A stretch of DNA of 64,000 nucleotides, taken from the NCBI GenBank assembly GCA_947649205.1, contig CANSQM010000003.1:62001-126000 (forward strand). Direction: 5' to 3'. This DNA is from an uncultured Enterorhabdus sp. (lineage in GTDB: Bacteria; Actinomycetota; Coriobacteriia; Coriobacteriales; Eggerthellaceae). The first letter of the stretch is position 1; every line of letters begins with the position of its first letter. The position numbers were made by a program, and so were the translations under genes. Of this stretch, positions 1 through 1,578 are shown piece after piece. The notes beneath the pieces were generated by a model, which was not told the DNA's origin, did no database searches, and was given only the letters and a program-made list of their open reading frames with translations.

Positions 1-1171
1 CATTACCGTCCCGAAATGGGTGCACGACAGTAAGGCCATGATGGATATCCAAGACGCGCTCAAGGTACTCGCTCGGTAGCAAAGAATCGCTATTAGCCAC
101 AAATGCGTCAATCTCCTTGCCCTTGAAATACATCTCTTGAACCACGCGACGATAGTCCACTGTCTCGAACTTGCCCCCAAGAACGAAAGTGTTTGCCTGC
201 CGAAATGCGCCACCAAATTCCGGATGCCTCGCTGCCGAGAATAGGAGCTTGTTGATCTCTGTTGCATCATAGATTACCAACGGGCCGGCCGACATCGCCT
301 TCCTAAAGACCCAGTCGTAAGCCGATGCCAAGCCCGCCACCTCAACAATGTTTTGGTTTTCTTCACTGTAAAACTTACTACGGCTGCCGTTCAATCTCAA
401 GTCAACGACTATTTCCGCAGCAAGCTCCCTCTCGACGACCACGCCTTCCATTCGACTATCGTGAAATACATACTCTGTTTCAAATATCTGCTTCGTTTGG
501 GGCGAGGGCTCCACTCTCAGAAACAGCTCTGAGGCGTCGTACAATTGACGATACAGGGGAACGTCGCTCAGGCCCAATTCAGCTCGATGGGCCATAGGAC
601 CAAACTCGCTGCGCCTCTGCCTCAGCGCAGCCCCAGTGACATCGCCATCAATGACATGGAAATCGAAGGCAAGTCGATTCAGACACGCCGCGAAACTAAC
701 ACCGAAATAATCGGCTATCTTCAAGGCGCTCTCGAAGCTTACAAAACCGTTGACCTTATATTCGTCCACCTGCTCACGAAAGAGCGATGATGGCATGAGC
801 AGCGCCGCAGCGAATGCCTCGGCATAGCGCTCGATGTCATTGTCCAATGCAGTCGAGCACATATAACCTGTATCAGCATCTTTTATGTGATGACACAGTT
901 CGTGAGAGGCAGTGTATCGCTGGCGCGTTACAGGACGATTCGCGTTAATGCCTACCACGGGCGCATCGTCATCGCCCTCGGCAGGAATATATACACCCTC
1001 GTAATTCGAAAAGTTCCGAAAAGAGAACACTATGCCCATATCCCGGAGAATCTCAAAAGGATTCACCGGGATAGAAGGCTCTTGTCCAGAATAATAGTCA
1101 GAAATAAAAGCCTCGGCCAGCTGTTCCGGAGAGGCTCCATCCCGCGCCATGCGCGCATAATCAACAGTCAA
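1..1171 (-). CDS. ImmA/IrrE metallopeptidase fused to a Fic domain (partial, runs off the left edge)
   Basis: An uninterrupted minus-strand frame of 390 codons reaches the window edge. Residues 90-94 read HELCH, the HExxH zinc motif of M78/ImmA-IrrE peptidases. It is followed by ERYAEAFAAALLMP (about 114-127), where E118 is the likely third zinc ligand. After about residue 200 the frame becomes Fic-like: FHDSRMEG (near 242) resembles the S-x-IEG inhibitory helix, GGAFR lies at 320-324, and HPFRDGN at 384-390 is the Fic catalytic motif, cut before its final G/K-R. ImmA peptidases cleave XRE repressors; Fic enzymes usually AMPylate targets. I place the start at TTG 1171, with GAGG a few bases upstream inside the end of the XRE gene; ATG 1150 is the alternative. 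The only in-frame stop is upstream, at 1187-1189. Base composition is AT-richer than the neighbours, which suggests transfer. Both domain calls rest on motifs; function is inference. Confidence 0.85.
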   Translation of the reverse strand, partial: MTVDYARMARDGASPEQLAEAFISDYYSGQEPSIPVNPFEILRDMGIVFSFRNFSNYEGVYIPAEGDDDAPVVGINANRPVTRQRYTASHELCHHIKDADTGYMCSTALDNDIERYAEAFAAALLMPSSLFREQVDEYKVNGFVSFESALKIADYFGVSFAACLNRLAFDFHVIDGDVTGAALRQRRSEFGPMAHRAELGLSDVPLYRQLYDASELFLRVEPSPQTKQIFETEYVFHDSRMEGVVVERELAAEIVVDLRLNGSRSKFYSEENQNIVEVAGLASAYDWVFRKAMSAGPLVIYDATEINKLLFSAARHPEFGGAFRQANTFVLGGKFETVDYRRVVQEMYFKGKEIDAFVANSDSLLPSEYLERVLDIHHGLTVVHPFRDGN

Positions 1172-1172
1172 C

Positions 1173-1487
1173 TTAGCCTCGAGCTTTCACCGCACGCTTG
1201 AACTCCATCAAATTGAGAATCTCTCTTTGGTCCTCTTCATCAAGCTGGTCAAAGCATCGCGCAAAAACTTGGCTGGGAGCTGCAGCCGCCCTGCCATGCA
1301 AAAGTTCGTCAACCGAAACAAGAAACAGCTTACTCAGGTCATCGAGCTCTTTGGCAGAAACCTTCCGACGTCCCGCCTCGATATCTGCAACTGCAGAACG
1401 ACCGATGCCAAGGTAGTCCGCAACATATTGTTGAGAGAGATGGAGCTTCGTTCTCGCAGCTTTTATACGTACGCACAACTCAGACAT
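1173..1487 (-). CDS. XRE-family helix-turn-helix regulator
   Basis: A 104-residue protein. Residues 5-60 form a Cro/C1-type HTH (RIKAARTKLHLSQQYVADYL, then GRSAVADIEAGRRKVSAKEL). A short C-terminal part is rich in acidic residues (DQLDEEDQREILNLMEF). The start is the ATG at 1487, preceded by AAGGAGG at good spacing; an upstream ATG ten codons earlier has no such site. The stop falls directly before the likely TTG start of the ImmA-Fic gene, so the two are probably co-transcribed and translationally coupled. In XRE/ImmA pairs the HTH protein is the repressor and peptidase substrate; here it would control its own operon, probably through the palindrome at 1562-1578. The exact role with a Fic partner is unknown. 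Confidence 0.9.
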   Translation of the reverse strand: MSELCVRIKAARTKLHLSQQYVADYLGIGRSAVADIEAGRRKVSAKELDDLSKLFLVSVDELLHGRAAAAPSQVFARCFDQLDEEDQREILNLMEFKRAVKARG

Positions 1488-1561
1488 ACTTCCTCCTTCA
1501 CTCTGTCTGACGATCATCTCATACTATGCTGAATTTAACAACACTTCTTGTCTGAATTTCC

Positions 1562-1578
1562 GACAATAGGAGATTGTC
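1562..1578. promoter_or_regulatory. Palindrome upstream of the XRE gene, candidate operator
   Basis: GACAAT-AGGAG-ATTGTC is a perfect 6-bp inverted repeat about 75 bp upstream of the XRE start codon, in an AT-rich region of 198 bp (1488-1685) that holds no gene. A further GACAA half-like sequence lies nearer the gene on the minus strand. Autorepression by the XRE protein is inference. Confidence 0.45.

What the first reader, a model, noticed from the sequence alone, without database searches (positions are those of the whole stretch)
1..1578. ImmA/IrrE peptidase fused to a Fic domain and paired with an XRE regulator in an AT-rich island
One continuous frame joins HELCH (residues 90-94), E118 in AEAFAAALLMP, a possible inhibitory DSRMEG (near 242), GGAFR (320-324) and HPFRDGN (384-390). 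XRE-ImmA pairs act as protease-controlled switches in mobile elements and stress; Fic domains AMPylate or otherwise modify targets. Joining them would let cleavage of the XRE repressor and a modifying activity share one trigger. A palindrome upstream could be the operator. The island is AT-richer than its neighbours. I see no phage gene next to it. Function (defence, toxin-antitoxin or stress) is inference.
Basis: partly seen in the sequence, partly recalled or inferred. Interest (0 to 1): 0.85.

Follow-up and report, generated by a model that had tools for sequence, protein, structure and literature searches.

The report
Protease-Fic fusion beside its repressor
A bacterium carries a mobile two-gene switch in which one protein joins a repressor-cutting type of protease to a Fic protein-modifying enzyme; the same pair, often with the same DNA control site, recurs in several bacterial phyla and looks like a self-triggering shut-down or anti-virus device.

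Summary
The gene runs 200 bases past the window's left edge and encodes one 456-residue protein: an ImmA/IrrE (M78) protease and a complete Fic domain. An XRE gene lies 1 bp upstream.

It is not a one-off. I collected 42 uninterrupted fusions, mostly Bacillota, also Chloroflexota, Spirochaetota, Actinomycetota, a phage-like plasmid and viral contigs; 28 groups at 70% identity. The 41 with upstream sequence all have the XRE gene directly before them; no third gene is shared. A 17-bp dyad precedes the XRE gene in 29 of 41 loci (shuffles 0.66); its exact form occurs once in this genome, at 1549-1565. Catalytic residues are conserved, bar one Fic D/E position.

Closest known: the CapH-CapP switch and class II Fic toxins such as Sofic. 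Fic takes the place of the sensor domain of PprI-type proteases. Likely mechanism, inferred: a trigger activates the protease, the XRE repressor is cut, the operon is derepressed, and Fic modifies a target and stops growth. I found no paper on the fusion. Verdict: new variant of a known kind.

The parts
1..1171 (-). M78(ImmA/IrrE)-Fic fusion gene, TTG start at 1171; cut by the window edge, ends 200 bases to the left at G000:C3:61801 (456 aa in full)
671..1042 (-). M78 peptidase domain, residues 44-167; HELCH 90-94, third-ligand candidate E114
   Evidence: Pfam PF06114 E 6.9e-16; H90, E91, H94, E114 in 42 of 42; CapP 7t5t fold match Z 16.6, rmsd 2.9, 165 aligned, model 9-193
443..460 (-). inhibitory-helix motif DSRMEG, residues 238-243
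   Evidence: helix 224-241 in the model; E242 aligns with the FICD Glu; R240 and E242 42 of 42, residue 238 acidic 42 of 42
2..268 (-). part of the Fic domain inside the window (residues 302-390 of 302-401), with HPFRDGN; GRSLR follows, nearly all outside
   Evidence: Pfam PF02661 E 2e-9 on the full protein; FICD fold match Z 26.6, rmsd 2.7-2.8, 238 aligned
1173..1487 (-). XRE (HTH_3) repressor gene, 104 aa, 1 bp upstream of the fusion
   Evidence: PADLOC capH E 1.6e-12 over residues 7-96
1549..1565 (.). 17-bp dyad TGTCTGA-ATT-TCCGACA, the operator-like site shared by most members

Best explanation
A mobile two-gene stress or anti-phage switch. The XRE protein binds the 17-bp dyad and holds down its own operon (inferred from the shared site and family knowledge). 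A signal, most likely DNA damage or single-stranded DNA made during phage infection, activates the M78 domain, which cuts the XRE protein; the operon is then derepressed and more fusion protein is made, a positive feedback. The Fic domain of the same protein, class II-like and held by its own N-terminal inhibitory helix, transfers AMP (or another group) to a cell target and stops growth. Shown here by sequence: architecture, constant pairing, conserved catalytic residues, a shared control-site-like dyad unique in this genome, spread among unrelated hosts and elements, predicted fold. Inferred: DNA binding, cleavage, trigger, AMPylation, growth arrest, defence.
For: Fusion uninterrupted in 42 loci (36 groups at 90% identity, 28 at 70%), XRE directly upstream in 41 of 41 with upstream sequence, at -23 to +19 bp (the profile was built from three of these XREs). 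HExxH and E114 42 of 42; Fic H384, F386, G389, N390, G391, R392, R395 42 of 42; inhibitory E242 42 of 42. PADLOC capP matches 42 of 42 fusions and capH 37 of 41 XREs. Dyad in 29 of 41 upstream regions (<=2 mismatches; shuffles 0.66), 22 (<=1; 0.02), 10 exact (0), 0 of 41 downstream controls; grouped at 70% identity, 19 of 27 groups have a member with it; exact pattern once in the 2.7 Mb assembly; one locus not used to derive the pattern has it exactly (L115). Model pLDDT 89.5, pTM 0.89, both folds recognised. Patchy spread: 2 of 396 genomes of the class, own included; 5 of 299 in the family of L020's genome, itself included. Context: DRT2-like gene in the same island, Qat genes directly downstream (L012), nested between brxC and a pglX-type gene (L013; L015), a phage-like plasmid between lysis genes and integrase (L005), viral contigs. 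Literature: CapP is ssDNA-activated and cuts CapH (PMC13373217, passages); Sofic, a class II Fic, is reported to act by abortive infection (PMC12249575, passages).
Against: No experiment. In PprI the GAF-like C-terminal domain supplies two of the three arginines whose joint loss abolishes ssDNA binding, and is needed for ssDNA activation (PMC10904395, passages); the fusion has Fic in that place, so ssDNA sensing may be lost or changed, although the Arg at H-7 and an aromatic at H-4 are kept in 42 of 42. 12 of 41 upstream regions lack the dyad at <=2 mismatches (L005, L018, L031, L033, L036, L039, L040, L041, L042, L068, L070, L072), among them most of the divergent rows. The pattern was derived from the same regions. 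No sigma-70-type promoter was found at the window site. Defence neighbours were traced in only four loci, without an enrichment test, and two of them are close relatives; eight of ten neighbour proteins matched no PADLOC model. capH is not the only fitting model for the XREs (HTH_VI 39 of 41), and PDC-S04, RmrA and PDC-M69B models also match all 42 fusions. The Fic target is unknown; the motif does not guarantee AMPylation.
Confidence: 0.5

Rival explanations
1. Toxin-antitoxin pair with direct neutralisation: the XRE protein is an antitoxin that binds the fusion and blocks its Fic domain; the M78 domain removes that antitoxin (or itself restrains Fic in cis, as ImmA-domain antitoxins neutralise toxins in RosmerTA). 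Transcriptional control is secondary.
For: Two-gene, mobile, patchy, constant pairing; Xre + COG2856 + toxin was predicted as a three-component TA system (PMC2701414, passages); ImmA-domain RmrA proteins are paired with varied RmrT toxins (PMC10440598, passages); RmrA models of PADLOC also match the M78 half.
Against: The Fic domain already carries its own inhibitory Glu (42 of 42), so an outside inhibitor is less needed; in RosmerTA the ImmA domain belongs to the antitoxin, often with the HTH, not to the toxin; the shared dyad points to transcription.
Confidence: 0.22
2. The Fic domain is the input, not the output: it replaces the GAF-like sensor domain of PprI, and nucleotide or AMPylation state of Fic gates the protease; the only output is transcription of the operon and, in some loci, of co-transcribed defence genes.
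For: Fic follows M78 where PprI has an HTH and a GAF-like domain; in L012 the Qat genes follow 61 bp downstream on the same strand, like regulators placed before immune operons (PMC13373217, passages).
Against: No downstream gene is shared by more than a few loci, so output by transcription alone would mostly regulate the pair itself; the exact dyad occurs once in this genome; the full catalytic Fic motif is kept.
Confidence: 0.15
3. A regulator of a mobile element (an ImmR/ImmA-type induction switch) whose Fic domain modifies host proteins to help the element.
For: PDB matches of the XRE profile include the ICEBs1 regulator 7t8i; some copies lie in phage-like elements.
Against: The exact dyad is unique in the genome, so no element genes with it are controlled; integrase-family matches in only 3 of 139 neighbour proteins; the window copy sits among polysaccharide genes.
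Confidence: 0.08

Closest known systems
CapH-CapP (HTH repressor + M78 protease controlling CBASS and other immune operons)
   Same: XRE gene followed by M78 protease gene; capH and capP are the best PADLOC matches of the two window proteins and match 37 of 41 and 42 of 42 members; M78 fold match to CapP 7t5t
   Different: capP matches only over profile positions 4-151 of 242 in the window protein; the rest of the chain is a class II-like Fic domain; no CBASS operon recognised beside it
Sofic and other class II Fic proteins (FICD-type fold)
   Same: N-terminal inhibitory helix with Glu, HxFx(D/E)GNGRxxR core; FICD Z 26.6, SoFic 3eqx Z 21.6; Sofic reported as abortive-infection defence (PMC12249575, passages)
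   Different: carries an M78 protease in front, has no room for the Sofic C-terminal domain; S/T of the inhibitory motif is D/E in 42 of 42
RosmerTA (RmrA ImmA-domain antitoxin, often with HTH, with varied RmrT toxins)
   Same: ImmA-type domain, HTH and a toxin-like domain in one small mobile module; RmrA models match the M78 half
   Different: here the HTH is separate and the ImmA domain is fused to the toxin-like domain instead of being the antitoxin
PprI(IrrE)-DdrO and ImmA-ImmR
   Same: M78 protease with XRE partner; the residues at H-7 (Arg) and H-4 (aromatic) that touch ssDNA in PprI are kept
   Different: no GAF-like domain recognised; effector-like enzyme in the same chain; exact dyad unique in the genome, so no wide regulon is apparent

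Membership tests
Peptidase M78 (ImmA/IrrE) | HExxH plus downstream Glu in an M78 profile match | tested here: met
Fic (PF02661) | HxFx(D/E)GN(G/K)R motif and profile match above cut-off | tested here: met
   Window protein 38.6 bits against 24. Across 42 members H, F, G, N, G, R are invariant; the D/E position is N in one, L039
class II Fic | inhibitory helix N-terminal to the core with conserved Glu | tested here: met
   predicted helix 224-241 followed by E242, aligned to FICD; E242 42 of 42
class II Fic | canonical (S/T)xxxE(G/N) inhibitory motif (motif recalled) | tested here: not met
   position E-4 is D in 31, E in 11 of 42
Sofic | NCBIfam equivalog score; C-terminal domain after the AMPylase domain | tested here: not met
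   NF046030 15.5 bits against 550; the protein ends about 55 residues after the Pfam Fic match
CapH-CapP | HTH repressor of CapH type directly before the protease | tested here: met
   capH profile 37 of 41 XREs at E <= 0.001, though HTH_VI matches 39; gene order in 41 of 41
CapH-CapP | full-length CapP including its C-terminal region | tested here: not met
   profile match 4-151 of 242, followed by Fic
CapH-CapP | adjacent immune operon under its control | tested here: inconclusive
   no CBASS model among the 25 of 28 families shown; Qat downstream in L012, BREX genes around L013 and L015, no shared third gene
CapH-CapP | protease activated by ssDNA, cuts the HTH protein | not testable with these tools
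   needs biochemistry
RosmerTA | ImmA-domain protein is the antitoxin, separate toxin gene | tested here: not met
   toxin-like Fic domain and ImmA-type domain are one chain in 42 loci; whether the ImmA domain neutralises Fic in cis is untested

The most novel reading that the evidence does not exclude
A stand-alone two-gene immune system in which one polypeptide does everything after the repressor: the protease half senses infection and cuts the repressor, the Fic half kills or arrests the cell, and derepression amplifies both. Because Fic sits where related proteases hold their ssDNA-sensing domain, triggering may run through the Fic domain itself, coupling effector state to protease activity.
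Probability: 0.3. Interest if true: 0.8.

Novelty: new variant of a known kind. Interest (0 to 1): 0.62.

Why it matters
How the toxicity of the Fic protein Sofic is regulated during infection is called elusive (PMC12249575, passages), and a three-component Xre + COG2856 + toxin system was predicted in 2009 (PMC2701414, passages). A natural fusion of a repressor-cutting type of protease to a Fic enzyme, with a dyad that is unique in the genome, makes both questions testable with two genes and one 17-bp site. It also suggests that the M78 module is used with other partners: a Halobacillus locus joins M78 to a chagasin-type inhibitor next to a papain-family gene.

Tried and rejected
Single-sequence scans of genome contigs and viral contigs found no relatives; the three-sequence alignment did. 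A conserved third gene: none; among 204 neighbour proteins (up to three on each side) the largest cluster had 4 members. Sigma-70 promoter and terminator at the site: none. Rfam in L002:5000-12000 at gathering thresholds: none. Repeats of 18 bp or more in L002:4800-12100: none. tRNA in L002: none. Matches in phage records: 20, none covering 80% of the query. Split versions as separate genes: none convincing; L076 has the two domains in different frames, but L072 and L075, which have the same XRE and M78 sequence types, read on in one frame, so a frameshift is likelier. The mirror-tree correlation of XRE and fusion (r 0.87, permutation maximum 0.34) is not used as evidence of contact, because genes inherited together correlate anyway. 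The tree does not show direction of transfer; the window and Adlercreutzia rows group with five Bacillota rows (97/82), and L072, L042, L030, L037 are long branches. PDB matches of the XRE profile are those of HTH repressors at large (the best is a designed protein, then 7t8i of ICEBs1, P22 C2; DdrO and 7t5u lower) and do not single out CapH (that 7t5u is CapH is recalled).

Rows dropped: of 48 loci with a fusion frame, L001, L003, L004, L006, L071, L073 repeat others letter for letter and L053 is cut by the contig start; L039 was added after (its motif reads HPFENGNGR, which the first filter missed). Not counted as fusions: L034 (stops in frame, HPYSDGNGR), L043 and L076 (frame changes), L047 (internal deletion), L038 and L046 (match ends within the protein), and loci with only one domain. 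The dyad pattern was read off the same upstream regions that were then counted, and some loci are close relatives. Of four loci brought besides the centre, L113 and L114 repeat known sequences, L116 repeats L053 and has no upstream part, so only L115 is new. Neighbour scans: one search shows 25 of 115 families and 25 of 28; matches such as mad3 (2 proteins) and PDC-S01, -S03, -S45, -M51A (1 each) were not traced to loci; eight of ten proteins had no match and one (L032) matched a subtilase model.

Papers: for PMC10904395, PMC10440598, PMC2701414, PMC13373217, PMC12249575, PMC8649781, PMC5720513, PMC6929052 and PMC10538038 I saw passages only. The other papers listed (PMC8790059 among them) I saw as listings only; the 'irre' hits came up by word beginnings such as irreversible, so that call tests little.

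Full report
WHAT IS THERE. In the host assembly (G000, contig C3; window = 62001-126000) the frame runs on to 61801 and encodes 456 residues without a stop. Pfam finds Peptidase_M78 at 44-167 (E 6.9e-16) and Fic at 302-401 (E 2e-9), both over their cut-offs. The part outside the window completes the Fic motif: HPFRDGNGRSLR. The XRE gene (1173-1487) ends 1 bp before the TTG start of the fusion. It is the only M78 match at E 1e-5 in this genome.

CONSERVATION. A search of 396 genomes of the same class found two with a match at E 1e-20, the window's own and G199, 52% identical; G199's contig carries the same protein as L007, Adlercreutzia sp. ZJ141. A phylum sample of 396 found only the own genome. 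For comparison, 104 of 396 class genomes have some M78 match. A plasmid search gave 134 records, of which one covers at least 80% of the query, on a Bacillus pumilus plasmid; there the pair lies between lysis genes and an integrase beside tail genes. With these three aligned, scans returned 61 loci from bacterial genomes and 39 from viral contigs, many with only one of the two domains. After removal of duplicates and of broken or partial copies, 42 uninterrupted fusions remain: on the tree's labels Bacillota 31, Chloroflexota 2, Spirochaetota 2, Actinomycetota 1, and 6 unlabelled; 36 groups at 90% and 28 at 70% identity. In the family of L020's genome (titled Lachnospiraceae), 5 of 299 genomes match at E 1e-60, the centre itself included; one match is cut at its start (L116) and one has a stop counted.

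THE UNIT IS TWO GENES. In 41 of 41 loci with upstream sequence an XRE gene precedes the fusion on the same strand: 26 overlap, 4 abut, 11 lie 1-19 bp apart. Clustering of 204 neighbour proteins found no shared third gene; the largest cluster had 4.

ACTIVE SITES. Over 42 members H90, E91, H94 and E114 of the protease, and H384, F386, G389, N390, G391, R392 and R395 of Fic, never vary; D388 is D 32, E 9, N 1, and P385 is A in 5. E114, not E118, lines up with the IrrE and CapP glutamate. The inhibitory region reads [D/E]xRxE: R240 and E242 in 42 of 42, residue 238 acidic in 42 of 42. So the inhibitory Glu and its presumed arginine partner R395 (partner role recalled) are kept, but the canonical S/T is not.

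FOLD. The model built with 40 fusions has pLDDT 89.5 and pTM 0.89. The Fic half matches FICD (Z 26.6, rmsd 2.7-2.8, 238 aligned), 3cuc (Z 24.2) and SoFic 3eqx (Z 21.6); residues 9-193 match CapP 7t5t (Z 16.6, rmsd 2.9, 165 aligned). Profile searches of PDB sequences agree for the fusion: FICD 1e-22, CapP 1e-10, IrrE 3e-8. For the XRE they give HTH repressors at large. PADLOC's capP model matches 42 of 42 fusions and capH 37 of 41 XREs at E 0.001; SoFic, PDC-S04, PDC-M69B and RmrA models also match 42 of 42 fusions, and HTH_VI 39 of 41 XREs. In the window protein capP is covered only to position 151 of 242.

OPERATOR-LIKE SITE. Inverted repeats upstream of the XRE genes suggested a 17-bp dyad, TGTYNGA-NNN-TCNRACA. 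Counted over 41 upstream regions it is present in 29 with at most 2 mismatches, 22 with at most 1, 10 exactly; dinucleotide shuffles give 0.66, 0.02 and 0, and stretches downstream give 0 of 41. With close relatives grouped at 70% identity, 19 of 27 groups have a member with it. The pattern came from the same regions, so the test is partly circular; one new locus, L115, has it exactly. Twelve regions lack it, most of the divergent rows among them. In the G000 assembly the exact pattern occurs once, at window 1549-1565. This points to a repressor dedicated to its own operon; binding is not shown.

CONTEXT. The window copy sits in a stretch of 47-54% GC between polysaccharide genes of higher GC. 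To its left follow a 250-residue protein without family, a DRT2-like reverse transcriptase (PADLOC Drt2 E 1e-122; NCBIfam Drt2 319 bits, under its cut-off of 390) and an AAA ATPase. Elsewhere the pair stands 61 bp before qatA, followed by qatB, qatC and qatD (L012), and between brxC and a pglX-type gene (L013; L015, whose neighbours cluster with those of L013). These are four loci of 42 with a traced defence neighbour, the two BREX ones close relatives; no enrichment test was made, and further PADLOC matches were not traced. Among 139 neighbour proteins the commonest Pfam families are HTH (up to 7 proteins), phage integrase (3) and flavin reductase (3), the rest 1-3 each (25 of 115 families shown).

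HOW IT PROBABLY WORKS. By family knowledge, XRE binds the dyad and represses; M78 proteases of the ImmA/PprI/CapP kind cut such repressors, and PprI and CapP are activated by ssDNA (PMC10904395 passages; PMC13373217 passages). The fusion keeps the arginine (H-7) and aromatic (H-4) that touch ssDNA in PprI in 42 of 42, but has Fic where PprI has the GAF-like domain that supplies the other two arginines. So the trigger may still be ssDNA, or may have changed. Cutting of XRE would free the operon and raise the amount of fusion, whose Fic half, class II-like, would modify a target; Sofic, a class II Fic protein, is reported to cause abortive infection (PMC12249575 passages). Binding, cutting and every later step are inferred.

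KNOWN OR NEW. Xre + COG2856 + toxin was predicted as a three-component system (PMC2701414 passages), ImmA-type antitoxins with varied toxins are known as RosmerTA (PMC10440598 passages), and CapH-CapP controls immune operons (PMC13373217 passages). I found no paper that describes an M78-Fic fusion: the searches were in an open-licence library, which lacks most subscription papers; PMC8649781, PMC5720513, PMC6929052 and PMC10538038 were checked by passages and list the two families apart, and other listed papers were not opened. The CapH-CapP paper itself is not held. The pair fails full membership in CapH-CapP (C-terminal part), Sofic (score, C-terminal domain) and RosmerTA (arrangement), so I file it as a new variant of the XRE-M78 switch with a Fic domain built in.

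VERDICT. Real, conserved and unusual; the parts are known, the joining and the shared dyad are not described in what I searched. Mechanism confidence 0.5, interest 0.62.

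Noticed in passing
L002:6908-8365 (-), G000:C3:58908-60365, left of the window: DRT2-like antiviral reverse transcriptase (PADLOC Drt2 E 1e-122; NCBIfam Drt2 319 bits, below its 390 cut-off) with about 450 bases before the next gene upstream; no Rfam match.
   Followed up: partly
L002:5318-6787 (+), left of the window: AAA ATPase, best PADLOC match ATPase-Toprim_I-B (E 3e-35), in the same AT-richer island.
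   Followed up: partly
L002:8817-9569 (-), left of the window: 250-residue protein between the fusion and DRT2 genes, with hydrophobic stretches by eye, no match in Pfam, PADLOC, NCBIfam or PHROGs at the limits used.
   Followed up: no
L051:7590-9574 (Halobacillus salinus): XRE gene, then an M78-chagasin (inhibitor I42) fusion, then a papain-family protease gene: the same kind of module with a protease inhibitor in place of Fic.
   Followed up: partly
L013:3240-11923 and L015 (Chloroflexota): The XRE-fusion pair is nested in BREX genes between brxC and a pglX-type gene (for L013; L015).
   Followed up: partly
L012:7685-14062: The pair is followed directly by qatA, qatB, qatC, qatD on the same strand.
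   Followed up: partly
fusion residues C93 and C105 (window about 857-895, minus strand): Two cysteines near the metal site are conserved, 41 and 39 of 42; role unknown, perhaps redox or metal.
   Followed up: no
L034, L047, L048, L049, L076: Damaged or shortened copies: in-frame stops, an internal deletion, shortened M78 frames after an XRE frame (in L048 followed by a helicase-like frame, by eye), and a frame change.
   Followed up: partly
L007:9517-10041 (-) (Adlercreutzia): CdiA_C-family toxin-like gene directly downstream of the fusion on the other strand; transposase-like frames lie nearby, by eye.
   Followed up: no
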